Position numbers and translations under genes: made by a program. Shown here one piece after another: positions 2,534 through 62,984 of a stretch of 64,000 nucleotides of DNA. Within the stretch, counting starts at the first letter, position 1; each line of letters starts with the position of its first letter. Source of the DNA: Saccharopolyspora endophytica (lineage in GTDB: Bacteria; Actinomycetota; Actinomycetes; Mycobacteriales; Pseudonocardiaceae); assembly GCF_018070075.1 (NCBI RefSeq), contig NZ_JAGPXE010000004.1, forward strand, positions 124,001 through 188,000, read 5' to 3'. The notes beneath the pieces were generated by a model that saw only the letters and a list, made by a program, of their open reading frames with translations, did no database searches and was not told the origin of the DNA.

Positions 2534-5500
2534 TCAGCCCTGCCCGGACGCGGTCGCCTGGGCGGTCTGCTCCTGCTCCGCGGGCGTGGGCTGCGTCTGC
2601 GGCTGGCGCGGCGGACGGACGGGACCCGCGGCGACCTGCTCGTCGACGTCGAAGTCCGCTTCGTCGGGCAGCCCGATGACGCCCATGCCCGCGTCGGCGT
2701 TGGTGCCCCAGACGTCTTCGTCCTCGGACAGCCAGGTCTGCCGTTCGCGCTCGTTCTTGTCGCCCTGCTGGCCGCCCATTCCGCCCATCATCGGCGGCAT
2801 GAACGGCATTCCGCCCATTCCCTGCTGGGTGGAGGGGCCGTTGAGCTGGCTCATGCCCGGTGGCAGCGCCGAGGACTGCGATCCGCCGAGGCCGGAGCCC
2901 GCGCCGGAACCCATGCCGAAGCCGGTCGTGCCGCCACCTGCTCCGCCGCGCTGCTGCTCGGAGCCGCTGCCCGAGCCGCCGAGACCGTCGGCCGAACCGT
3001 CCGGCGAGCCGAAGCCGTCGGAGACGCTGTCGAAGCCGTAGCCCTCGGCCGGATCGGACACGCCGTCGAAGCCGCCGGAGCCGAGACCGCCTGCGCCGTC
3101 GCCGAATCCACCGGCTCCGCCGTTGGCGACGTCGCCGAGGCCCGCGCCCGCGCCGGACCCGAGACCGCCGGGGTCGAAACCGCCCAAGCCGCCGTTGGCG
3201 GGGTCGCCCAAGCCGGCGCCGGCGTCGGAACCGAGGCCACCGGGATCGAAACCGCCCTGGCCGCCGGGCAGATCGCCGAATCCTCCGGCACCACCGTTCG
3301 CCGGATCGCCCAGGCCCTGACCCGCGCCCACACCACCATCAGCGCCACCCGGCAGATCACCGAAACCACCGGCACCACCATTGGCCGGGTCGCCGAGGCC
3401 TTGGCCCGCCCCGAGACCGGAATCCGCGCCACCAGGAAGACCCGCGTCACCGAAACCACCAGCGCCACCGTTGGCGAGATCACCCAGACCCGCACCAGCA
3501 CCATCGTTGGCACCGGTACCGAAACCACCGGCACCACCATTGGCCGGGTCGCCGAGGCCCTGGCCAGTGCCAAGACCGGAATCCGCACCACCTGGCAGAC
3601 CCGCGTCACCGAAACCACCGGCACCACCGTTGGCGAGATCACCCAGACCCGCACCAGCACCATCGTTGGCACCGGTACCGAAACCACCGGCACCACCATT
3701 GGCCGGGTCGCCGAGGCCCTGGCCAGTGCCAAGACCGGAATCCGCACCACCTGGCAGACCCGCGTCACCGAAACCACCGGCACCACCGTTGGCCAGGTCA
3801 CCGATGCCTTCACCGGCACCCGGGATCGGGTTTCCGTTGGAGTCCAGGGGAACGCCGGTCATGCCGCCGGGACGGTCCTGGTCCTGCTGACCGGGGATGT
3901 CGCCGAAGCCGCCGGCACCGCCGTTGGCGGGGTTGAAGGAGCTCTCGGTCAGGCCGCTGTCGACCAGGCCGGGCTGCTGCGGTCCGTCGCCGAGGCCACC
4001 GGCGCCTCCGTTGGCGAGGTCGTTCTGACCGAAGTCGCCGAAGCCGCCCGCGCCGCCGTTCGCCGGGTCGCCGTTGGGGGTGGTGCCGGGCTTGTTGCCC
4101 GCACCGCCGCCTGCGCCACCAGGCAGACCGAGCCCGCCGGGGCCGACCATCGGCGGGGGCGCACCGCCGTTCGCACCGTTGTCGCCGGTACCCAAACCGG
4201 AGTCGCCGCCGAGGCCGTCGCCACCGCCGAGGCCACCGGCACCGCCGTTGGCGAGGTCACCACCACCGGGGCCACCGAGGCCGTCACCGGTGCCGAGGCC
4301 GCCGATGCCACCGTTGGCCGGGTCGCCTCCGCCGGGACCTCCGAGGCCGTCACCGCCACCGAGGCCACCGGCACCGCCGTTGGCGAGATCGCCACCACCG
4401 GGGCCACCGAGGCCGTCACCACCGCCGAGACCGCCCACACCACCGTTGGCCGGATCACCGCCGCCGAGTCCGTCACCGCCACCGGGTGGCGGCACGTCGG
4501 TGTTCCCGTCGGGCGGGGGCACGTTCGTGTTGCCACCGGGCGGCGGGACGTTGGTGTCCCCACCGGGCGGCGGTGGGAAGTTCGTGTTGCCACCGGGCGG
4601 CGGCGGCACGTTCGTGTTGCCGTCGGGCGGCGGCGTGGTCGACGGGGTGTGCGGGGCGCTGGTCTCCGGCTCGGTGAGCTCCTTGATCGCCGACTGCGCG
4701 TACTTCAGCTCCTCCTCGAGGGGCTTGAGCGCCGCGGCCGCCGCGGTGTCGAGCGTCTTGAGCTCGGTGAGCGCGGCGTTGGTGATCTCCGTGTTCATCT
4801 TGTCCCACGGACCGGCGGTGACCAGGTTGCCTTCCTTGAAGCTGGCCAGCGAGGTGTTGATGTACTCCTGGGCTTCGGAGGTGCTCTTGCCGTCGAGCTG
4901 GTAGTTCGGCGCGCCCTTGACCAGGCCGACGCCGTTGGTCAGGAACTCGTAGAGCTGGTTCTCGTAGTCGACCCGCTTGTTGTTGGGCAGGTAGAGCGCC
5001 CGGGCGCGGAAGTCGTAGAAGGCTTGGGCGAGTCCGTTGACCGCCGCTTCGATCTTGTCGCCGAGGTTCTTCAGCGCCACCGAGACCGCGACGCCGCGGT
5101 CGATGGTGAGCTGTTCGTGCAGGCCCTCCAGCTTGTCGGCGTTCTGGTCCATGCGCCCCTGGATGACCGAGGCGGCCTTGCCGCTGAACCCGGAGTCCTC
5201 TGAGTCCAGCGACTTGGCCCAGGTCCGGAAGTCCTTGCCGGTGGCTTCCAGCCACTTCTCGTACTTGCCGACGAGGTCCTGCGCCTGGCGCAGGGTCGGC
5301 AGGTCGAGGGTGCCGCTCTTGCCCGAGGACATCTCGGCGACGATGGTCCCGGCGTCGTTGATCGCCTTGGTCCACGCGTCGGCCGCCGCCGTGTTGCGGT
5401 TGACCCGGTAGTAGACCCGGTCGAACGCGGTGTAGGTGAGGTCTTCGGTGGGGGCGACCCGGTTGGTCAGGTCTTCCTTGAGCTTGTCCCCGGTGAAGTC

Positions 5501-5665
5501 GGCGTCCTTGCCGCCGGCACCACCATCCCCGCCGCCGGCGACCTCGAACCACTTGACGCCTTCGGCCATGGATTTCAGGTCCGGCCCCTTTCCGGTCAAC
5601 GCGTTGAGGGCCTGGAAGAACGTCCAGTCACTGCTGGGGCCAGACAGGTCCGCGTTCTCGGGCAT
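2534..5665 (-). CDS. ESX-associated protein with PGRS-like ANGGAGG repeats (1043 aa)
   Basis: Residues 1-335 are a helical, acidic domain with several Trp residues, of the kind found at the N-terminus of PPE/WXG-like type VII substrates. Residues 335-385 are a proline/glycine linker. Residues 390-890 carry about sixteen copies of a D-P/L-ANGGAGG-F/L-G unit, the proline and leucine forms often alternating. The C-terminal part has a Met/Gly-rich patch and, near residues 973-990, a conserved-looking tail (ERERQTWLSEDEDVWGT) seen in other large actinobacterial ESX-locus proteins. There is no signal peptide. AGGAGA precedes the ATG. It lies between the small WXG-type genes and YbaB in one operon. 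A secreted or surface role is inferred; no enzymatic domain was recognised. Confidence 0.75.
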   Translation of the reverse strand: MPENADLSGPSSDWTFFQALNALTGKGPDLKSMAEGVKWFEVAGGGDGGAGGKDADFTGDKLKEDLTNRVAPTEDLTYTAFDRVYYRVNRNTAAADAWTKAINDAGTIVAEMSSGKSGTLDLPTLRQAQDLVGKYEKWLEATGKDFRTWAKSLDSEDSGFSGKAASVIQGRMDQNADKLEGLHEQLTIDRGVAVSVALKNLGDKIEAAVNGLAQAFYDFRARALYLPNNKRVDYENQLYEFLTNGVGLVKGAPNYQLDGKSTSEAQEYINTSLASFKEGNLVTAGPWDKMNTEITNAALTELKTLDTAAAAALKPLEEELKYAQSAIKELTEPETSAPHTPSTTPPPDGNTNVPPPPGGNTNFPPPPGGDTNVPPPGGNTNVPPPDGNTDVPPPGGGDGLGGGDPANGGVGGLGGGDGLGGPGGGDLANGGAGGLGGGDGLGGPGGGDPANGGIGGLGTGDGLGGPGGGDLANGGAGGLGGGDGLGGDSGLGTGDNGANGGAPPPMVGPGGLGLPGGAGGGAGNKPGTTPNGDPANGGAGGFGDFGQNDLANGGAGGLGDGPQQPGLVDSGLTESSFNPANGGAGGFGDIPGQQDQDRPGGMTGVPLDSNGNPIPGAGEGIGDLANGGAGGFGDAGLPGGADSGLGTGQGLGDPANGGAGGFGTGANDGAGAGLGDLANGGAGGFGDAGLPGGADSGLGTGQGLGDPANGGAGGFGTGANDGAGAGLGDLANGGAGGFGDAGLPGGADSGLGAGQGLGDPANGGAGGFGDLPGGADGGVGAGQGLGDPANGGAGGFGDLPGGQGGFDPGGLGSDAGAGLGDPANGGLGGFDPGGLGSGAGAGLGDVANGGAGGFGDGAGGLGSGGFDGVSDPAEGYGFDSVSDGFGSPDGSADGLGGSGSGSEQQRGGAGGGTTGFGMGSGAGSGLGGSQSSALPPGMSQLNGPSTQQGMGGMPFMPPMMGGMGGQQGDKNERERQTWLSEDEDVWGTNADAGMGVIGLPDEADFDVDEQVAAGPVRPPRQPQTQPTPAEQEQTAQATASGQG
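3381..3800. repeat. 159-bp tandem repeat inside the Gly-rich ESX protein gene
   Basis: A 159-bp unit (53 codons) repeats head to tail. The marker ttggccgggtcgccgaggcc starts at 3381, 3540 and 3699, exactly 159 bp apart, and the third copy decays near 3800. The second and third copies are almost identical over more than 100 bp, which points to a recent duplication. The unit encodes two ANGGAGG modules, one with proline and one with leucine before ANGG. The period is a multiple of three, so copy-number change would keep the frame. Confidence 0.9.
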
Positions 5666-6428: not shown

Positions 6429-6716
6429 CTACGCCATGATCTGGGCGCTGCGGTTGTCACCGTCCTGGAAGGCCTGCGCGGCGTTGTTCGAGGAGGTGTA
6501 GCCGCTGCTCAGGCGGGTGTTCATCTCGGTGTAGGCCTGGTTCCACTTCTGCTGCTTCTCGGCCCACAGCGGCGCGGCCTTGCCCTGGGTGGCCTCGCCC
6601 ATGTTCTTCAGGAAGCCGTTGAGCTCGTCGAGGATGGTGCCCATCTGACGAACGGCCTGCTGCAGCCCCATGTTGACCTCTTCGTAGGCCCCGTGCTGCA
6701 CGCTGAACTGCGTCAT
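6429..6716 (-). CDS. WXG100 family type VII secretion target (95 aa)
   Basis: The length (95 aa) and helix-turn-helix hairpin are typical of EsxA/EsxB-type proteins. The turn is PLWAEKQQKWNQAY near residues 48-61: the conserved Trp is present, but the usual WxG glycine is replaced (Trp-Ala-Glu). Such proteins form helical heterodimers that are exported by the ESX machine and can engage EccC. The adjacent 103-aa gene is the natural partner. GGAG lies just upstream of the ATG. It is separated from both neighbours by about 250-300 bp that hold the two copies of a repeat. The C-terminus (NNAAQAFQDGDNRSAQIMA) has no obvious YxxxD/E export signal. Confidence 0.85.
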   Translation of the reverse strand: MTQFSVQHGAYEEVNMGLQQAVRQMGTILDELNGFLKNMGEATQGKAAPLWAEKQQKWNQAYTEMNTRLSSGYTSSNNAAQAFQDGDNRSAQIMA

Positions 6717-7348: not shown

Positions 7349-8773
7349 TCATGGTGCTGTGTGCACACCACCACCTGCGGCTCGCTCCGGTGCGAGAACC
7401 GGTCCGGTCGGCAGCAGCGAGAGCAGGTGCGCTGGAACCGGAACCGCGTCGGACAGCCGATAGCCGAGGGCTTCGGCCGCGCTCTGGCCGGGCACCGGGT
7501 ACTTGGCGCCCGAGTCGGTGACCAGGTAGAGGCCGGCGCCTGGCACGCCGGGCGCGGGCAGCGTGCGAGCGAGCACGCCCGCGCCTGGTTGGACGTCGAT
7601 GCGGTCGGCGGTGAACTCGTCGCGCTCGATGCCCGGTCCGTCGACGATCACGCCGGCTTCGGGCCATCCGCTGACCAATGTGGACTTGGCGCCGCGTGAC
7701 CCGGGTTCGACCTGGGCGCAGGGCGCTCCGAGGTCCGAGGAGTCCGACGTTCCGGCGGTGGGCAGCAGCGACGGCGGCTTGTCCGGCAGCTGCGACATCA
7801 GCGGCGACGAGGGCATCTGCCCGACCGAGGCCATAGCCGCGGGTGAGAGGACCCGCGGGCTCGGCTGCCCGCCACCGGCCGGGTCGCCCATCGCCAGCGC
7901 GGCGGTGGTGCCGTTGACCGGCATCAGTCCGCCCGTGGTGAGCATGTGGAGCGTCTGCGGGCGGCCGACGACACTGACGGAGAAGATCTGCCCGATGCGG
8001 GTGGGCTGGCCGCCGAGCGACGGGCCGGGCTGTCCCGCTCCGGGGATCCGCAGCGGTCCGAGGTCCGGTCCGGCGGGCATGGCGTTGATGAACGCGTCTC
8101 GCACCGGCAGCGCGGTGGAGGCGTCGTAGCCCAGCACCGCGGCCACCCACGGCGCGCTGAGCTTCATCCGCTTGTCCCGCCACACCAGGTACTGGTCGCC
8201 GCTGCTGGAGCGCACCAGGACGGCTTCGTCCTGCCGCGCGGGTTCCACATCGGACGTGTCGCCGACGTGCAGGGTGACGGTGGCGTGCGGAGCCCCGGCG
8301 GCGTCGCGGGTGGTGGTCGCGCAGACCAGCCACGCCTGGGCCGCGCTGCCCGCGCCGCCTGCCGGGATCCCGTCGGGGGCGCCGATGATGCCGATCGGAG
8401 TGCCGCGCGGGACGTCGCTCAACGTCGAGCGGGACACCTCCGCGACCTCCTTCGCCCCGAGCAGCCGCGCCGACGCGTAGTTGAGCACCGGGCGCAGCGT
8501 GCCGTCGGAGGCCAGCACGTACTGGCTCCCCGTCTCCTTCTCCACGATGAGCTTGCCGGGCTCGGACCAGTCGGTCGCTCCGCCGAAGCCGAGAACGCCG
8601 GCGACGGCGAATCCGGCGACGATGAGCATCGACAGCATCAGGCCGATGACGTAGCCCAGCGGGGTCCGCCGCAGCGGCGGATCGGGCGCGTCGGGTTCGG
8701 CCTGCACCAGCGCGGAGACGACCCGCGCCGACATGAAGGAGTGCGCCTGGACCTGATCACTTCGCGAGTGCAC
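7349..8773 (-). CDS. eccB: Type VII secretion membrane protein EccB
   Basis: This is a 474-aa bitopic membrane protein of the ESX core complex. The N-terminus (SRSDQVQAHSFMSARVVSALVQ) matches the start of EccB proteins. One membrane helix lies at about residues 41-63. The periplasmic-side part carries EccB-type repeat segments such as SGDQYLVWRDKRMKL and GAKYPVPGQSAAEALGY. Two Cys residues (CATTT near 151 and GAPCAQV near 351) could form the usual disulfide. The GTG start has GGGGAGG 5 nt upstream. It is 48 bp downstream of eccD and 67 bp upstream of the first esx gene. Confidence 0.93.
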   Translation of the reverse strand: MHSRSDQVQAHSFMSARVVSALVQAEPDAPDPPLRRTPLGYVIGLMLSMLIVAGFAVAGVLGFGGATDWSEPGKLIVEKETGSQYVLASDGTLRPVLNYASARLLGAKEVAEVSRSTLSDVPRGTPIGIIGAPDGIPAGGAGSAAQAWLVCATTTRDAAGAPHATVTLHVGDTSDVEPARQDEAVLVRSSSGDQYLVWRDKRMKLSAPWVAAVLGYDASTALPVRDAFINAMPAGPDLGPLRIPGAGQPGPSLGGQPTRIGQIFSVSVVGRPQTLHMLTTGGLMPVNGTTAALAMGDPAGGGQPSPRVLSPAAMASVGQMPSSPLMSQLPDKPPSLLPTAGTSDSSDLGAPCAQVEPGSRGAKSTLVSGWPEAGVIVDGPGIERDEFTADRIDVQPGAGVLARTLPAPGVPGAGLYLVTDSGAKYPVPGQSAAEALGYRLSDAVPVPAHLLSLLPTGPVLAPERAAGGGVHTAP

Positions 8774-8821
8774 GACGACCTCCCCGCACAGCTGCGCAAG
8801 TCGGCCGCGGCAGCGCCTCTG

Positions 8822-10252
8822 CTACGACCATGAGGCCCTCACCAGTGCGTAGAGGTTCAGGGCGGCGAAGGTCATCGGGATGATCGCGATGGCGAGGGTG
8901 GTGTGCGCCCAGTCGCCGGCGCGGCCCCAGTGCGGCAGCATCTTCCGGCCGGGCAGGCCGCGGGCCCCGGCGAGCAGGAGCCCGGCGAGCAGGACCAGCC
9001 CGCCGATGATGAAGATCCGCCAGGTTCCGGGGATCAGCAGGCACATCGCGGAGATCACCGCGGCGAGCCCGAGGAAGCCGGGCACCATGACGGCGACGCG
9101 CTGGCGGGAGCTGACGAACTCGCGGGAGTGCAGCAGGAGCAGCAGCGAGGCGATCGCGGCGAGGGTCGGCGACGCCCACCCCGGGGTGAAGGCGAGGATG
9201 CCGAGGCAGCCCGCGATGACGACGCCGAGCCCGAAGCACAGGGCGGTGAGGTTGAAGTCGGCCGCGGCGGTGCGGTTCATCAGCTCGCGTCCGGGTTCCG
9301 GGTCGATGCCTTCCTGGAACTCCTCGGCGGAGGTCGGCAGCGGCGGCACCTTGAGCCCGGCCATCCAGGCGGCGATGCGCGGAACGCGGGTTCCGACCAG
9401 CAGCGTCACGGCGAGCACGACGGCGGCGGCACCGCCCGCGGAGAGCATGTCGAAGGTGTTGAGCAGGCCGACGAGCGCGGTGAGGCCGGTCGCCAGCATC
9501 GCGGCGAGGTACCCGGCGCCGAATCCGCCGCCGACCAGGAAGCGGCCGAGCACGATGGCGCTGGTGCACACCGCCGCCGCGGTCAGGCAGGGCGCGACGA
9601 GCTGCGGGTTCATCGCGAGGACGGGTCGGCCGATCATCGGCAGCGCCCAGCCGGCGGCGGCGCCGAACGCGGCGCTGCCGGTGAACAGCAGTTCCGCGGC
9701 GGCCCGGTCGCCGAGCGCCCGCGAGGCCAGGGTGGCCGCGCCGAGCAGCAGCAGCGCGACGCTGCCGGCGGTGATCGCCACCCACTGCCCCGCGCCGACG
9801 GTGGGCAGCAGGACGAGCCCGAGCGCGAGCGAGGCGCCGAGCAGCGCGAGGAACGCGCGGCGGGTGCTCTCCGGACGCCACAGGTCGCGGCGCTGGTTGC
9901 GGATTCCGGTGGCCACGCCGTCGGCGAGGTCGTCGAAGTCGGCCGGCGGCAACTGGTCGTTGCGCGGCCTGAGGTAGAGGATGTCGCCGTCGTAGAGGCC
10001 CAAGGCGGCGGTGCCGAGATCCTCCTGCAGGGCGGGCTCACCGAGCCGCTGCAGGACCCAACCGTCGTGTTCCAGACCCGCGTTGCCGAGTCCTCCCCCG
10101 AGGTGGTCGAGGAAGGTGGGCAGCAGGTCCGCGAGCGGAATGTGGGCGGGTACCGCGAGCTCGACCCGCGAGCTGGGGCCCTGAATCGTCAGTCGACACA
10201 CCTCGCCCGCGGCGACCGCGGGCTGAGCCGTCGTTCCCGTCATACCCACCAC
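8822..10252 (-). CDS. eccD: Type VII secretion integral membrane protein EccD
   Basis: This 476-aa protein has a ubiquitin-like cytosolic domain at residues 10-100 (from CRLTIQGPSSRVELAVP to YDGDILYLRPRND) and then about eleven hydrophobic membrane helices from residue 135 to the end. This is the EccD layout; EccD forms the membrane-spanning vestibule of the ESX pore. It is the first gene of the leftward unit and is divergent from eccC across 238 bp. The start is uncertain between GTG 10252 and ATG 10243; neither has a strong ribosome-binding site. Confidence 0.92.
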   Translation of the reverse strand: MVGMTGTTAQPAVAAGEVCRLTIQGPSSRVELAVPAHIPLADLLPTFLDHLGGGLGNAGLEHDGWVLQRLGEPALQEDLGTAALGLYDGDILYLRPRNDQLPPADFDDLADGVATGIRNQRRDLWRPESTRRAFLALLGASLALGLVLLPTVGAGQWVAITAGSVALLLLGAATLASRALGDRAAAELLFTGSAAFGAAAGWALPMIGRPVLAMNPQLVAPCLTAAAVCTSAIVLGRFLVGGGFGAGYLAAMLATGLTALVGLLNTFDMLSAGGAAAVVLAVTLLVGTRVPRIAAWMAGLKVPPLPTSAEEFQEGIDPEPGRELMNRTAAADFNLTALCFGLGVVIAGCLGILAFTPGWASPTLAAIASLLLLLHSREFVSSRQRVAVMVPGFLGLAAVISAMCLLIPGTWRIFIIGGLVLLAGLLLAGARGLPGRKMLPHWGRAGDWAHTTLAIAIIPMTFAALNLYALVRASWS

Positions 10253-10490
10253 ACGGTCCCCGGTCTAGGAACAGTTCAACCAATTTGACGAACGCCGGTC
10301 TCCGGCGGCAGCCCGCCCACCTGCGCCGGGCGCGTTGCGCACCGCCGATCGGCCGAACCGGGCCCACTCCGCCCAGTTCCGGACGATGGTCGGTATTTCG
10401 GTCGGCCGGTTTCCCGCTGCGGCTTTGACCCGTTTGGAGTCCTGCAGCCGTGTAGGGGATGAGGGGTAGCAGGGAAAGGATCTGATCGCA
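10253..10490. promoter_or_regulatory. Divergent promoter region between eccD and eccC
   Basis: This 238-bp gap separates the two divergent ESX transcription units, so both promoters must lie here. An AGGGAAAGGA ribosome-binding stretch at 10471-10480 serves eccC. No clear -35/-10 pair or strong palindrome could be assigned by eye. Confidence 0.6.
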
Positions 10491-13400
10491 TTGAGTGTGA
10501 CGCCGTTTCGGCGACCGGCCAGGCAGAAGCCCCCCGCGATGCCCGACGGGGAACTGTCCTTGCAGGAGCCGCCCGTCATACCCGAGCAGGTCAGTGGCGG
10601 TTTCGGCGGTCTGCTGATGTACCTGCCGATGGCGCTGGGTTCCGGGGCCATGATGCTGATGTTCATGGGCCGCGGCGGTTCCGGCGGTTTCGGCGGCATC
10701 GGGCTCATCGTGGTGGCGCTGATGGCGGTGTCCATGCTGGCCATGGGTTTCGGCCAGATGGGGCGCAACATCGGCGAGCGCAAGCGCCGCCTCAAGGGCG
10801 AGCGCCGCGACTACCTGCGCTACCTGGGCCAGATGCGCAAGCAGGTCCGCCAGGTCGCGGTGGATCAGCGAAAGGCGTTGTCGTGGCGGCATCCTGACCC
10901 GTCGGGCCTGTGGTCGGTGGCGATGAGCGGACGGCTGTGGGAGCGGCGCTTGTCGCACGCCGACTTCGCCGAGGTCCGCATCGGCCGGTCCGCGCAGCGG
11001 CTGGCGATGAAGATGACGCCGGTGCAGTCCAAGCCGGTGGAGGACCTGGAGCCGCTGTCCGCTCGGGCGCTGCGCCGGTTCATCAAGGCATACACCACTG
11101 TGGACGATCTGCCGACGGCCCTGTTCCTGCGCGGTTTCTCGCAGGTGCAGATGCGCGGTGACGTCGAGGCCGCGCGCGGCCTGCTGCGCGCCGTGCTGGC
11201 GCAGCTGGTGACCTTCCACTCCCCCGACGACCTCAAGATCGCCGTGTGCGCGAGCTCCGACCGGGCGTCCGAGTGGGACTGGGTGAAGTGGCTGCCGCAC
11301 GCCCAGCACGCCAGCCAGCAGGACGGCGCCGGTCACGTGCGGATGCTGACCAGCACGCTCGCCGAGCTGGAGGCCGTCGTCGGTCCGGACCTGGGCGACC
11401 GGGGCCGGTTCGAGGCCGGTGCGAGCCCGACCCGCGACGAGCCGTTCGTGGTGGTCGTCCTCGACGGCATCACCACCCCGGCGGAGTCCCGGCTGGCCGG
11501 TGCCGGCTACCGCAACGCGACCGTGCTCAACCTCGACATGTCCGGGACCGCCCAGCGCACGACGCTGCGCCTGGAGCTGGCGAGCGAAAAGATCGACATG
11601 ATCCGGCTCAACCGCTCCGGCGCCGAGGTGCGCACCGAGCTGGGCACCCCGGACTCGCTGAGCCTGTCGCAGGTGACCTCGCTGGCGCGCACGCTGGCTC
11701 CGTTCCGGCTCAGCGCCACCACCGACATCGTCGAGCCGATGGTCACCGACTTCGACCTCGCCGCGCTGCTGGAGGTCGGCGAGATGGACAAGCTCGACGC
11801 CGCCCGCACCTGGGCGCGGACCTCGCCGCAGGACCGGCTGCGGGTGCCGATCGGCATCGCCGAGAACGGCACCAAGATCGAGCTGGACATCAAGGAGTCC
11901 GCGCAGGGCGGCATGGGCCCGCACGGCCTGCTGATCGGCGCGACGGGTTCGGGCAAGTCGGAGCTGCTGCGCACGCTGGTGGTCGCGATGGCGATCACGC
12001 ACTCCTCGGAGTTCCTCAACTTCGTGCTGGTGGACTTCAAGGGCGGCGCGACGTTCCTGGGCCTGGACGAGCTGCCGCACACCTCGGCGGTGATCACCAA
12101 CCTGGCCGACGAGGCACCGCTGGTCACCCGCATGCAGGACGCGCTGCAGGGCGAGATGGTGCGCCGCCAGGAGCTGCTGCGCTCGGCGGGCAACTACAGC
12201 TCGCTGCTGGAGTACGAGAAGGCCCGCGCCGCGGGCGCTCAGCTGGCTCCGATGCCGAGCCTGTTCCTGGTGGTCGACGAGTTCAGCGAGCTGCTGGCCT
12301 CGCACCCCGACTTCGCGGAGCTGTTCGTGATGATCGGCCGGCTGGGCCGGTCGCTGGGCGTGCACCTGCTGCTGGCCTCGCAGCGCATCGACGACGGCCG
12401 GATGCACAAGCTGGAGAGCCACCTGTCCTACCGGATCGGCCTGCGCACCTTCTCGGCGATGGAGAGCCGTTCGGTGATCGGTGTCCCGGACGCCTACCAG
12501 CTGCCGAGCGCGCCGGGCAACGGCTACCTGCGCTCGGACGTGGCCACCCTGTCGCGGTTCAAGGCCGCCTACGTCTCGGCGCCGTTCAAGCGGCGCACCG
12601 CGGAGCAGCGCAAGGCCGAGATCAGCCGCCAGGTGGTGACCTTCGGCGCCGCCCGGCTGCCCGACGCGCCCACCGCGCAGGTCCCGGAGCCGGAACCCGA
12701 GACCGAGGAGGAGTCGACCGAGACCCTGCTGCAGGTCGCGGTCAGCCGTCTCAAGGGCCAGGGCCCGCCGGCGCACCAGGTGTGGCTACCTCCGCTGGAC
12801 GAGCCGCCGACGCTCGACGAGCTGCTGCCGCCGCTGGTCCCGGATGCCGACCACGGCCTGACCCCGATCAGCTGGCCGGGTCGCGGCAAGCTGCAGGTGC
12901 CGGTGGGCGTCATCGACAAGCCCTTCGACCAGGCCCGCGAGCTGTACATGGTGGACCTGTCCGGGGTCGGCGGGCACGTCGGCATCGCCGGTGGCCCGCA
13001 GGCGGGCAAGTCGACGATGCTGCGCACGCTCATCGCCGGTCTCGCGCTGACCCACACGCCCTCGGAGGTGCAGTTCTACTGCCTGGACTTCGGTGGCGGC
13101 ACCCTGCAGACCCTCGGCGAGCTGCCGCACATCGGCGGCATCGCCGGGCGCATGGACAAAGAGCGGGTCAGCCGCACCGTGGCCGAGGTGCAGGGCGTGC
13201 TGGCCAAGCGCGAGGAGCTCTTCGCCGCGCACGGCGTGGAGAACATGGCCGAGTACCGGGAGCTGCGCCGCAAGGGCAAGATCCCGGAGGACTCCTTCGG
13301 CGACGTGTTCCTGGTGGTGGACAACTGGGGCACTCTGCGCAGCGACTTCGAGCAGCACGACCAGACGATCCGCTCGCTGGCCTCGCGCGGCCTGACCTAC

Positions 13401-14462
13401 GGCATCCACCTGATGCTGACCACCGGCCGCTGGGCCGACATCCACAGCCAGCTGCGCGACCAGCTGGGAACCCGGCTGGAGCTGCGGCTGGGCGACTCGA
13501 TCGACTCGGTGATCGACATGCGCGCGGCGGCGGGCGTTCCGCGCCAGCCGGGGCGCGGTCTGACGATGGACAAGCTGCACTTCCTGTCCGCGGTCCCGCG
13601 CCTGGACGGCCTGCGCCGGGTCGACGACCTGGCCAAGGGCGCCCGGATGCTGGCCGAGGCCGTTGCCGACAACTGGGACGGCGAGGACGCCGCCGGGGTC
13701 CGGATGCTGCCGTCGGTGCTGCCCGCCGGGCAGCTGCCCGAGCCGCAGGGCACGCTGCGGGTCGCGCTGGGCTGGGGCGAGGCGGACCTGCAGCCGGTGT
13801 GGCACGACTTCTCCACCCAGCCGCACCTGACGGTCCTCGGCGACACCGGCAGCGGCAAGACCGCGCTGCTGCGGTTGATCGCCGACGCGATCCCGAAGAA
13901 CTACGCGCCGGGCGAGGCCGAGCTGATCCTGGTCGACTCGCGCCGCGTGCTGCTGGACGCGGTCCCGGACGCCTACCGGCGGGGTTTCGCGTTCTCGGCG
14001 ACCGCCGCGAAGGACATCGTGGGCACCGCCGCGGGCGAGCTGCGCGAGCGGCTGCCCGGCGCGGACGTCACGCCGCAGCAGCTGCAGCGGCGCGACTGGT
14101 GGTCGGGCCCGGAGGTGTTCATCCTCGTCGACGACTACGACCTGCTGGCCAGCACCATGGGCGGTCCGCTGGACTCGCTGCTGGACCTGCTGCCGCAGGC
14201 CGCTGACATCGGTCTGCACGTGATCCTCACCCGCAGCGCCGCCGGTTCCTCGCGGCTGTCGATGGACTCGGTGGTGCGACGCATGCAGGAGTCCAACACG
14301 CCGGACCTGGCGTTCTCCTGCCCGCCCACGGAGATGCCGCTGCTCAACGGCATGCGCCCGCAGGTGCTGCCCACGGGCCGGGCGCACCTGGTGACCCGCC
14401 GCAGCGCGACGCTGATGCAGGCGGGCTGGCTGGAGCCGCGTCCGGCGGGAGACCGGGCGTGA
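10491..14462 (+). CDS. eccC: Type VII secretion FtsK/SpoIIIE ATPase EccC (fused EccCa-EccCb)
   Basis: This 1323-aa motor protein is made as one chain, with two membrane helices near residues 40-90. Three FtsK-like ATPase domains follow. Domain 1 has Walker A GATGSGKS near residues 483-490 and Walker B LFLVVDEFSELL. Domain 2 has a slightly unusual P-loop, GGPQAGKST, near 833-841 and FLVVDNWGTL. Domain 3 has GDTGSGKT near 1116-1123 and FILVDDYDLL. EccC binds the C-terminal tails of WXG100 substrates and powers export. The TTG start at 10491 has AGGGAAAGGA 10 nt upstream; a GTG two codons on is the alternative. Its stop overlaps the mycP start (GTGA). Confidence 0.95.
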   Translation: MSVTPFRRPARQKPPAMPDGELSLQEPPVIPEQVSGGFGGLLMYLPMALGSGAMMLMFMGRGGSGGFGGIGLIVVALMAVSMLAMGFGQMGRNIGERKRRLKGERRDYLRYLGQMRKQVRQVAVDQRKALSWRHPDPSGLWSVAMSGRLWERRLSHADFAEVRIGRSAQRLAMKMTPVQSKPVEDLEPLSARALRRFIKAYTTVDDLPTALFLRGFSQVQMRGDVEAARGLLRAVLAQLVTFHSPDDLKIAVCASSDRASEWDWVKWLPHAQHASQQDGAGHVRMLTSTLAELEAVVGPDLGDRGRFEAGASPTRDEPFVVVVLDGITTPAESRLAGAGYRNATVLNLDMSGTAQRTTLRLELASEKIDMIRLNRSGAEVRTELGTPDSLSLSQVTSLARTLAPFRLSATTDIVEPMVTDFDLAALLEVGEMDKLDAARTWARTSPQDRLRVPIGIAENGTKIELDIKESAQGGMGPHGLLIGATGSGKSELLRTLVVAMAITHSSEFLNFVLVDFKGGATFLGLDELPHTSAVITNLADEAPLVTRMQDALQGEMVRRQELLRSAGNYSSLLEYEKARAAGAQLAPMPSLFLVVDEFSELLASHPDFAELFVMIGRLGRSLGVHLLLASQRIDDGRMHKLESHLSYRIGLRTFSAMESRSVIGVPDAYQLPSAPGNGYLRSDVATLSRFKAAYVSAPFKRRTAEQRKAEISRQVVTFGAARLPDAPTAQVPEPEPETEEESTETLLQVAVSRLKGQGPPAHQVWLPPLDEPPTLDELLPPLVPDADHGLTPISWPGRGKLQVPVGVIDKPFDQARELYMVDLSGVGGHVGIAGGPQAGKSTMLRTLIAGLALTHTPSEVQFYCLDFGGGTLQTLGELPHIGGIAGRMDKERVSRTVAEVQGVLAKREELFAAHGVENMAEYRELRRKGKIPEDSFGDVFLVVDNWGTLRSDFEQHDQTIRSLASRGLTYGIHLMLTTGRWADIHSQLRDQLGTRLELRLGDSIDSVIDMRAAAGVPRQPGRGLTMDKLHFLSAVPRLDGLRRVDDLAKGARMLAEAVADNWDGEDAAGVRMLPSVLPAGQLPEPQGTLRVALGWGEADLQPVWHDFSTQPHLTVLGDTGSGKTALLRLIADAIPKNYAPGEAELILVDSRRVLLDAVPDAYRRGFAFSATAAKDIVGTAAGELRERLPGADVTPQQLQRRDWWSGPEVFILVDDYDLLASTMGGPLDSLLDLLPQAADIGLHVILTRSAAGSSRLSMDSVVRRMQESNTPDLAFSCPPTEMPLLNGMRPQVLPTGRAHLVTRRSATLMQAGWLEPRPAGDRA

Positions 14463-15613
14463 GGGCGGCGGTCGCGGTGGTGGCCGGGGTGGTGCTCGCG
14501 ATGGCACCGATCCCGGCCGCAGCCCAGCAGCAGCAGTGCGCGCAACCGGCGAATCACGTGGTGCCGCAGGAGGGTTGGGCCCTGCAACGCCTCGACCCGA
14601 GCCGCGTGTGGGGACTGACGACCGGCGAGTCGGTGACCGTCGCGGTCATCGGCACGGGTGTCAGCGCTGCGGCGCCGGCGCTGTCCGGTGCGGTGCTGTC
14701 CGGGCAGAGCCTCAGCGGCGGCGCGGGCGACGACGACTGCGCGGGCCGCGACACGTTCATGGCCGGGGTGATCGCGGCACGTCCGGCGGCGGGCACCGGT
14801 TTCACCGGCATCGCACCGGGCGCGCGGATCCTGCCGATCCGCATCACCAACGACCCGAAGGAGGTCGAGGCGGGCAAGCTGGCCTCGGCGATCCGCTCGG
14901 CCGCCGACGGCGGGGCGAAGGTGATCGCCGTGTCGGTCGGCACGGCCGCCGCCGACGGCGGGCTGCGCGCGGCGGTGTCCTACGCGCTGAGCAAGGACGC
15001 ACTGGTCATCGCACCGTCCGATGTGGACGTGGGCGAGGACGCGATCCCCTACCCCGCCGCGTTCCCGGAGGCGCTGGCGGTCACCGGCATCACCGGCGCG
15101 GGCGAGCCGATCCAGCACGCGGCAGGCCCGCCCGCGCTGGTCGCGCCGGGCAACGAGGTGGTCGGCATCGCCCCGCGCGGCAGCGGTCAGCTGGTGGCCT
15201 CCGGCGGCGGCATCGGGGTCGCGTTCGTCGCGGGCACGGCCGCGCTGGTGCGGGCCTACCACCCGCAGCTGTCCGCGTCCCAGGTGCGAGAGCGCCTGCA
15301 GGACACCGCCGATCACCCGCCCGCCGAGCTGCCGGACCCGCAGCGCGGCTACGGCGTGGTCAACCCGGCGTCCGCGGTCACCTCGGTGCTGCCCGCCGAG
15401 TCCGGCGAGATGCCGATGGCCGCGGCCGCTCAACCGGTTCACCTGCCACCGACGCCGGTCGTCGACCCGCTGCCGCGACTGGTCGCGCTGCTGGTCACCG
15501 GCTCGGTGGGGCTGCTGGCGGTGCTCGGCGCGATCGGCGCGGTGCTGCTGCCGCGAGCCCGCGAGCGGGGCTGGCGGTCGGCGTGGCACGGCACCCCGAA
15601 GAACGGGGGCTAG
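14459..15613 (+). CDS. mycP: Mycosin-type subtilase of the ESX locus, catalytic triad absent (pseudoprotease)
   Basis: This is a 384-aa mycosin: a signal peptide (residues 1-22), a subtilisin-like fold, a proline-rich linker, one C-terminal membrane helix (about 343-365) and a short basic tail. All three catalytic positions are changed. The Asp of the VIDTGV motif is Gly65 (VAVIGTGV), the His of GHGT is Arg97 (GRDT), and the Ser of GTS is Gly251 (SGGGIGVAFVAG). The oxyanion region (AAGN in relatives) reads APSD. The reading frame and surrounding fold motifs are intact, so this is not decay by frameshift. Mycosins of mycobacteria also stabilise the ESX membrane complex independently of proteolysis, so a purely structural role fits. 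The GTG start overlaps the eccC stop by 4 bp. Confidence 0.9.
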   Translation: MRAAVAVVAGVVLAMAPIPAAAQQQQCAQPANHVVPQEGWALQRLDPSRVWGLTTGESVTVAVIGTGVSAAAPALSGAVLSGQSLSGGAGDDDCAGRDTFMAGVIAARPAAGTGFTGIAPGARILPIRITNDPKEVEAGKLASAIRSAADGGAKVIAVSVGTAAADGGLRAAVSYALSKDALVIAPSDVDVGEDAIPYPAAFPEALAVTGITGAGEPIQHAAGPPALVAPGNEVVGIAPRGSGQLVASGGGIGVAFVAGTAALVRAYHPQLSASQVRERLQDTADHPPAELPDPQRGYGVVNPASAVTSVLPAESGEMPMAAAAQPVHLPPTPVVDPLPRLVALLVTGSVGLLAVLGAIGAVLLPRARERGWRSAWHGTPKNGG

Positions 15614-61666: not shown

Positions 61667-62881
61667 CTAGAAGCCGGAGACGTCGAGGAGGGGTTCCTGG
61701 GTTCCGTCGGGGTCTTGCGACGGCCAGGTCCAGTCCTTCGTTCCCGCTGCCCTCAAGGCGTTCTTGACCTGCTCCGGGGACGCGGTCGGGTTGGTCGCCT
61801 TGTGGAGGGCGGCGCCTCCCGCCACGTGCGGTGCGGCCATGGAGGTCCCGGAGATCGTGTTGTAGGTGCCGTTGGGCCAGGTGGAGTTGATGCACACGCC
61901 CGGTGCGATCAGGTCGACGTCGGCGCCGAAGTTGGAGAAGTCGGCGAAGGTGTCGTCCTCGTCGTCCCGGCAGGTCGCCGGAGCGCCGCCGCCCGGTCGG
62001 CCGTTGAAGTCGGCCAGCGCGCTGACGGTGATGACCTCGTCGTAGGCGGCCGGGACGCTGTCCTTGGCGTCGGCGGCGTCGTTGCCCGCGGCGACCGCGA
62101 AGGTGACGCCGGCCGAGACCGCGCGGCAGATCGCCTGGTGCTCGGAATCGCCGCTGCTGCGGCCGCACTGCCCGTCGTCGGTGCCCTCGCCGCCGAGGCT
62201 CATGTTGGCCACGTCGATCTGCCCGGCGTTGGCCGCGACGTAGTCGATGCCGCAGACGACGTCGGCCGTGGTGCCGACGCCCGCGTCGTTGAGGACCTTG
62301 ACCGGCCAGATCCGCGCGCCCGGCGCGACGCCGACGACGCCGTCACCGTTGTCGAGCGCGCCGATCGTGCCCGCGACGTGCGTGCCGTGACCGTGGCCGT
62401 CCTCCGGAGGCAGTATCGGCAGCGTGCAGTTCTTGCCGCCCACCACGTTGAGGTCGGGGTGGTCGCTGTCCACGCCGGTGTCGATGACCGCGACGTCGAC
62501 GTCGGTGCGCTGGTCGGTGCCGTCGATCCCGGCGGTCGGGCTGGCGTCGGCGTTGGCGCGGTCGACGCCGGTGGGCAGCGACTGAGCGGTGCTGCGCACC
62601 TGGCGGACCGGCTCCACCCAGGCCACGTCGGGATCGGCCGCGATGCGGTCGCGCGACTGCTCGCTCATCCGGCCGGAGTAGCCCTTCAGCGCCGACTGGT
62701 AGAGGTGCCCGACCTTGGCGCCGTTGTCCTGGGAGTGCTTGTTCGCCTTGGCCTTCGCGTCGGTGCCGTCCTTGAGCACCACGATGTAGTCGCCCTCGGG
62801 CGCGGGCGCGGCCTGCGCGGTCAGCCCCGTCGCACCCGCTAAAGCGCAGGCCAGCAGGATCGCCGTGGTTCGTCTTCGCAT
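61667..62881 (-). CDS. Secreted S8 subtilisin-like protease, intact triad
   Basis: This is a 404-aa preproprotein: signal peptide (1-24), I9-type propeptide (YIVVLKDGTDAKAKANKHS..., about 30-95), then the subtilase domain. The triad is complete: Asp in VAVIDTGVDSDHPDL, His in GHGHGTHVAGTIG and Ser in ISGTSMAAPHVAGGAAL, with the oxyanion Asn in VAAGNDAADA. It should be a free extracellular endopeptidase, unlike the ESX mycosin, as it has no C-terminal membrane helix. It is convergent with the lyase gene. Confidence 0.93.
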   Translation of the reverse strand: MRRRTTAILLACALAGATGLTAQAAPAPEGDYIVVLKDGTDAKAKANKHSQDNGAKVGHLYQSALKGYSGRMSEQSRDRIAADPDVAWVEPVRQVRSTAQSLPTGVDRANADASPTAGIDGTDQRTDVDVAVIDTGVDSDHPDLNVVGGKNCTLPILPPEDGHGHGTHVAGTIGALDNGDGVVGVAPGARIWPVKVLNDAGVGTTADVVCGIDYVAANAGQIDVANMSLGGEGTDDGQCGRSSGDSEHQAICRAVSAGVTFAVAAGNDAADAKDSVPAAYDEVITVSALADFNGRPGGGAPATCRDDEDDTFADFSNFGADVDLIAPGVCINSTWPNGTYNTISGTSMAAPHVAGGAALHKATNPTASPEQVKNALRAAGTKDWTWPSQDPDGTQEPLLDVSGF

Positions 62882-62984
62882 CGAAACCCCTCCGTTGATC
62901 CGACCTCTCGCCGACCACGACGACGTGCGACATCAACTCACGACGGCAGACCGCCCAGTCGGTACGAGCATGGCTGAAGACCAT

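What the first reader, a model, noticed from the sequence alone, without database searches (positions are those of the whole stretch)
14459..15613. ESX mycosin with all three catalytic residues replaced
In the mycosin encoded directly after eccC, the Asp, His and Ser of the subtilase triad are Gly65, Arg97 and Gly251, and the oxyanion AAGN reads APSD. The frame, signal peptide, fold motifs and C-terminal membrane helix are intact, so this looks like a maintained pseudoenzyme and not a decaying gene. In mycobacteria, mycosins are known to stabilise the ESX membrane complex apart from their protease activity. Here a system may have kept only the scaffold role, which would separate the two functions naturally.
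Basis: partly seen in the sequence, partly recalled or inferred. Interest (0 to 1): 0.85.

Follow-up and report, generated by a model that had tools for sequence, protein, structure and literature searches.

The report
Natural protease-dead ESX mycosins
A secretion-system subunit known as a protease has lost its whole cutting site in this soil bacterium and its relatives yet is still kept intact by selection, and related secretion systems have lost it separately, which suggests that its lasting job is structural rather than cutting.

The parts
14459..15613 (+). mycP: protease-dead mycosin (pseudo-subtilase), 384 aa
   Evidence: TIGR03921 257.6 bits (cut-off 278.75) and PF00082 70.3 bits (cut-off 21.8)
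14651..14653 (+). codon of Gly65, at the place of the catalytic Asp
14747..14749 (+). codon of Arg97, at the place of the catalytic His
15023..15025 (+). codon of Val189, aligned with the oxyanion Asn
   Evidence: the 51 intact sister rows have Asn there
15209..15211 (+). codon of Gly251, at the place of the nucleophilic Ser
14459..14462 (+). 4-nt overlap GTGA: mycP start codon over the eccC stop codon
10491..14462 (+). eccC, ESX ATPase
   Evidence: TIGR03924 1006 bits and TIGR03925 880 bits, both over cut-off
8822..10252 (-). eccD, ESX membrane protein
   Evidence: TIGR03920 232 bits over cut-off, PF19053 and YukD PF08817
7349..8773 (-). eccB
   Evidence: TIGR03919 323 bits over cut-off, PF05108
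6970..7281 (-). small Esx-like protein next to eccB (103 aa); identity by position and size only
   Evidence: no family over cut-off
6429..6716 (-). WXG100-like Esx protein (95 aa)
   Evidence: TIGR03930 E 4.8e-7 (29.9 bits, cut-off 44.85); PF06013 20.1 bits (cut-off 27.3)
2534..5665 (-). 1043-aa protein with long Gly-rich repeats; possible secreted substrate (inferred from position)
   Evidence: no Pfam family

Best explanation
It is a pseudoprotease: a mycosin whose subtilase domain should no longer cut peptides but is kept as a structural subunit of its ESX (type VII) secretion complex. Shown here: loss of Asp, His, Ser and the oxyanion Asn; the same loss in six genomes; purifying selection; a predicted intact mycosin fold with C-terminal helix; a start codon that overlaps the eccC stop codon. 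Inferred: like MycP5 it sits as a trimeric cap on EccB and holds the periplasmic part of the complex together, so that cutting is dispensable for this system. In its class the nucleophile and oxyanion Asn were lost first (all 33 rows lack both, 10 of them still with Asp and His); His then became Arg, on the tree in two separate branches; Asp became Gly only in the window's own branch.
Against: No assembly, secretion or binding data for these proteins. MycP5's contact elements are poorly conserved: loops 2 and 3 are short in this branch (alignment, by eye), and a tryptophan that the published interface buries on EccB is absent in the window; but it is absent in intact sisters as well (2 of 2, L079 and L080) and present in dead D/R/E systems (5 of 5), so it does not discriminate. 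The window mycP has the highest omega of the five genes compared.
Confidence: 0.7

Rival explanations
1. The dead cleft has a new positive job: it binds a substrate, peptide or ligand inside the periplasmic chamber and gates or senses export, as the pseudo-subtilase CspC does in spore germination.
For: New residues are fixed near the old active site: in the 33-row class Ser69 0.97, Ala157 1.00, Val254 1.00; Glu251 in 22 of 33 rows and Arg97 in 21 of 33. In ESX-5 the active sites face the chamber lumen (PMC8131196).
Against: The residue at the nucleophile site differs between groups (E, G, Q, A, V), which one shared binding role would not predict. No ligand known.
Confidence: 0.15
2. The system still needs cutting, but the active canonical mycosin of the same cell supplies it in trans.
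For: 20 of 20 canonical mycosins read in the genus are intact, the one of this genome (L115) included. The canonical copies of G002 and G014 were found but not read.
Against: The canonical mycosin belongs to another, distant system (30% identity to the window protein), which has an eccE where the window system has none; mycosins are called system-specific in mycobacteria (a title in the reference list of PMC8131196).
Confidence: 0.08
3. A different catalytic arrangement: the protein is an active hydrolase with displaced residues.
For: The D/H/E forms keep Asp and His; Arg97 is fixed in 21 of 33 rows.
Against: Of 72 dead rows, 70 have another residue than Asn at the oxyanion site, one has Asn and one a gap. 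The only His invariant in the nine-row alignment is His286, which also aligns with a His of active MycP1 and lies outside the active site (recalled).
Confidence: 0.04
4. A decaying gene or a sequencing artefact.
For: Highest omega among the five genes compared.
Against: No stop in any of the six orthologous frames, identical substitutions in separate assemblies, omega 0.11.
Confidence: 0.02

Closest known systems
Mycobacterial mycosins MycP1, MycP3, MycP5 (4kb5/4m1z, 4kg7, 7np7)
   Same: Subtilase fold, N-terminal extension with Cys, C-terminal membrane helix, encoded with eccB, eccC, eccD and esx genes; MycP1 is the best structural match
   Different: Those have Asp-His-Ser (PMC5156307, part 1 of 2 read) and longer loops 2 and 3; here all three catalytic residues and the oxyanion Asn are gone
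Engineered protease-dead MycP1 S354A and MycP5 S461A in M. marinum (PMC5082899, passages)
   Same: A mycosin without catalytic Ser; in that study secretion was kept with both
   Different: There one laboratory mutation; here natural, fixed and spread over the whole active site
ESX-4 gene clusters of non-mycobacterial actinobacteria (PMC4791881, passages)
   Same: eccB, eccC, eccD, mycP and esx genes without eccE: the only eccE of this genome lies in the other system
   Different: The passages read do not mention mycosins with lost catalysis
CspC pseudo-subtilase of Clostridioides difficile (PMC6636752, search listing only; NCBIfam NF040808)
   Same: A natural catalytically dead subtilase kept for another function
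   Different: A germination regulator, not a secretion subunit; of seven mycosins scanned one (L110) shows a weak match, 21 bits against a cut-off of 675

Membership tests
Mycosin (TIGR03921, type VII secretion-associated serine protease) | Score over the curated cut-off | tested here: not met
   257.6 bits against 278.75; but L077 (D/R/G, 305 bits) and L089 (D/Q/A, 304 bits), also without triad, pass it
Mycosin (TIGR03921, type VII secretion-associated serine protease) | Asp-His-Ser triad with oxyanion Asn | tested here: not met
   Gly65, Arg97, Gly251, no Asn
Mycosin (TIGR03921, type VII secretion-associated serine protease) | Subtilase fold like MycP1/MycP3 | tested here: met
Mycosin (TIGR03921, type VII secretion-associated serine protease) | C-terminal membrane helix | tested here: met
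   Helix 338-369 in the model, hydrophobic by inspection
Mycosin (TIGR03921, type VII secretion-associated serine protease) | Signal peptide | tested here: inconclusive
   Hydrophobic start by eye; no predictor was run
Mycosin (TIGR03921, type VII secretion-associated serine protease) | Encoded with eccB, eccC, eccD and an esx gene | tested here: met
   TIGR03919, TIGR03924/5, TIGR03920 over cut-off; the WXG100 match is below cut-off
Mycosin (TIGR03921, type VII secretion-associated serine protease) | Stabilises the EccB/EccC/EccD complex | not testable with these tools
   Needs biochemistry
Peptidase S8 (PF00082) | Score over the gathering score | tested here: met
   70.3 bits against 21.8
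Peptidase S8 (PF00082) | Proteolytic activity | not testable with these tools
   Catalytic residues absent, so activity is not expected

The most novel reading that the evidence does not exclude
Across actinobacterial ESX-4-like systems proteolysis by mycosin is an optional trait that has been lost repeatedly, while the EccB-capping subunit itself is kept; in the window's class the dead mycosin has become a dedicated structural subunit co-translated with the EccC ATPase. Nature has thus done the scaffold-versus-protease separation several times.
Probability: 0.5. Interest if true: 0.85.

Novelty: new variant of a known kind. Interest (0 to 1): 0.74.

Why it matters
In M. marinum mycosins are needed for type VII secretion while their cutting activity is not (PMC5082899), and why the active site is kept is open. 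Natural, long-lived dead mycosins show which parts are under selection without catalysis and give ready-made comparisons (dead and intact sisters, sometimes in one genome) for testing the scaffold model. They also show that the family model names some catalytically dead proteins as serine proteases.

Tried and rejected
Single origin of all dead mycosins: not rejected by the mycosin tree alone (43 dead of 89 rows, AU p 0.113), strongly rejected by the EccC tree (40 of 69 rows, dlnL 613, p 3.9e-53), which assumes that eccC and mycP are inherited together. Unordered parsimony gives 3 changes on the 135-row mycosin tree if the triad may be regained (without regain 4, by my own reading of that tree) and 5 on the EccC tree. 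Further AU tests did not finish (four, two) and are not used.

The Trp interface of MycP5-EccB5 as a test of the scaffold role: not informative. Relaxed selection: not seen. Plasmid relatives: only matches below 60% identity. A Foldseek search was not obtained; the VIA second look was used.

Overlap of mycP and eccC: one search showed an in-frame start at the overlap in 32 of 33 loci but did not check for stops between it and the gene; one search did. L162 fails (an in-frame stop follows; its mycP starts further downstream), and L203, missed because its eccC is split, passes, so the count is again 32 of 33. The class is one lineage, so overlap and loss going together is one event and only suggestive. 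One intact mycosin, L173, also lies directly after eccC on the same strand, without overlap. In one search, 15 of 56 intact, 4 of 13 G/R/A-type and 2 of 8 D/H/A-G/Y/A loci had no eccC in the fetched stretch.

Rows dropped: one search left out L116 (partial; also not in the count) and L015 (duplicate). One search also left out other duplicates, all canonical rows but six, and four rows for their long branches (L117, L119, L122, L124). The EccC tree used 69 of 82 loci, near-duplicates removed. One search counted duplicates and L116; one search recounts without them. The family and class samples were picked by similarity to the dead class, so their fractions are not frequencies. L222 repeats L175.

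Full report
What is there. The window lies in a Saccharopolyspora genome: contigs of S. aridisoli, S. ipomoeae and S. dendranthemae match contigs of three same-genus genomes in length. Positions 7349-15613 hold eccB and eccD on the minus strand and eccC and mycP on the plus strand; EccB, EccC and EccD pass their curated cut-offs. Beyond eccB lie two small Esx-like genes, a 127-aa gene, a 1043-aa Gly-rich repeat gene and a YbaB-like gene; only one of the Esx-like pair has a WXG100 match, below cut-off. The genome has one other strong mycosin, L115, with an intact triad. The one EccE of the genome lies about 4 kb from that canonical mycosin (G000:C1:620743-621924), not in the window, so the window system is of the EccE-less, ESX-4-like kind.

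The observation. The 384-aa product has Gly65, Arg97 and Gly251 at the triad positions (thermitase alignment; 91-row alignment) and lacks the oxyanion Asn. It matches Peptidase_S8 (70 bits, cut-off 21.8) and the mycosin model at 257.6 bits, below its cut-off of 278.75.

Fixed in the clade. Orthologues at 93, 87, 86, 83 and 64% identity all have G/R/G. The next relatives (L077, L078 and, from another genus, L125) are D/R/G. A search of 390 genomes of the family and 60 further neighbourhoods added D/R/E and D/H/E relatives. On the 135-row tree these make one group of 33 rows (SH-aLRT 93): nine D/R/G and G/R/G rows as sister of 24 D/H/E, D/R/E, D/T/Q and D/S/Q rows; EccC gives the same split. So Ser went first, and His to Arg happened in both branches (or went back once). 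The G/R/G rows also share Asp98 after Arg97, seen in none of the other rows; this is one event and only hints at a replaced salt bridge.

Selection. A codon model on five species gives omega 0.112 for this mycP; omega = 1 is worse by 2dlnL 344. Canonical mycP of the same species gives 0.060, eccB 0.085, eccD 0.054 and eccC 0.037 (IQ-TREE's log gives 0.112 for the first). Seven chosen dead sets give 0.039-0.121 and five chosen intact sets 0.038-0.115. There is no sign of decay, though the window gene is the least constrained of the five.

What was lost and what was kept. Of 129 columns at least 90% conserved in 51 intact sister mycosins, the 33-row class keeps 74 (in at least 80% of rows), loses 38 (under 50%), and 17 lie between. 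At the 98% level (85 columns) the six groups tabulated have each lost three or four of the four catalytic columns (P 0.0014-0.039; descriptive, as groups were named by their triad); the D/Q/A group lost only 7 columns, three of them catalytic. Over 195 distinct rows, 122 of 123 intact ones have the oxyanion Asn; of 72 dead ones one has it (L247) and one has a gap.

How common. In the 22 genomes of the genus, 37 of 44 non-canonical mycosins read lack the intact triad, 20 of 20 canonical ones have it, and 17 of 22 genomes carry at least one dead mycosin (the G002 and G014 canonical copies and the partial L116 were not counted). Five types occur in the family: the window class; D/H/A to G/Y/A; G/L/E and G/I/A; G/R/A; and D/Q/A. 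In a class-wide sample of 394 genomes, 8 of 30 mycosin rows read lacked the triad, in three other families; two of the 8 lack only Asp by the alignment (L226, L248). That sample was chosen by similarity to the dead class and includes L222, a repeat of L175.

How many losses. The mycosin tree with motif columns removed places the dead types among intact ones but does not reject one clade of all (p 0.113). EccC, four times longer, puts G/L/E next to intact systems and D/Q/A inside an intact group; it rejects one clade of all 40 dead-linked rows (p 3.9e-53) and a clade of D/Q/A with the window class and its D/H/A-G/Y/A kin (p 2.8e-4). If eccC and mycP travel together, the tests require more than one loss, and parsimony on the EccC tree counts five changes.

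Gene arrangement. In 31 of 33 loci of the class the script placed mycP directly after eccC on the same strand; the other two are L162, with a longer gap, and L203, whose eccC is split over three frames. In 32 of 33 the mycP frame opens with a start codon overlapping the eccC stop by 4 nt; L162 is the exception. Of 41 intact loci with eccC in view (of 56), 24 are convergent with it. Overlapping stop and start codons often mean coupled translation (recalled), which fits a subunit made along with EccC.

Mechanism. In M. [quoted passage not shown] MycP5 forms a trimer that caps and orders EccB5 (PMC8131196, passages and section 7). I infer that the window protein does the same without cutting. This step is not shown: the known contact residues and loops are not conserved even in intact sisters.

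Known or new. Eight searches of the open library listed no paper on naturally inactive mycosins by title or abstract start; most subscription papers are not in it, and I read passages of few. Dead subtilases as such are known (CspC, seen in search listings). I rate this a new variant of a known kind.

Noticed in passing
L223:269-2559 (genome G050, same order): Two adjacent mycosin-like frames, both without a full triad (D/T/E and D/R/A).
   Followed up: partly
L077, L089: NCBIfam TIGR03921 scores these triad-less mycosins above its cut-off (305 and 304 bits), so they would be named serine proteases.
   Followed up: yes
L162, L169, L172, L176, L178, L198, L200, L204, L209, L210: Ten mycosins keep Asp and His but have Glu for Ser; the Asp/His/Glu set could be a metal site, which was not tested.
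   Followed up: no
L203:2298-5999 and L078:10559-14996: eccC is split over three and two reading frames next to a dead mycosin; frameshift, natural split or assembly error was not resolved.
   Followed up: no
window 2534-5665 (-): 1043-aa protein with Asn-Gly-Gly-Ala-Gly-type repeats coded by tandem DNA repeats (periods up to 159 bp) beside the esx genes.
   Followed up: partly
window 61712-62926 (-): A second subtilase with an I9 propeptide domain (PF00082 171 bits), by its domains an ordinary secreted protease and not a mycosin.
   Followed up: partly
L076, L083, L084, L091, L103, L110 (genome G008): One genome holds six dead mycosins of six different triad states, plus two intact ones.
   Followed up: partly
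L251 (G000:C1:620743-621924): The genome's single EccE sits near the canonical mycosin, so the intact mycosin belongs to an EccE-bearing system and the dead one to an EccE-less system.
   Followed up: partly
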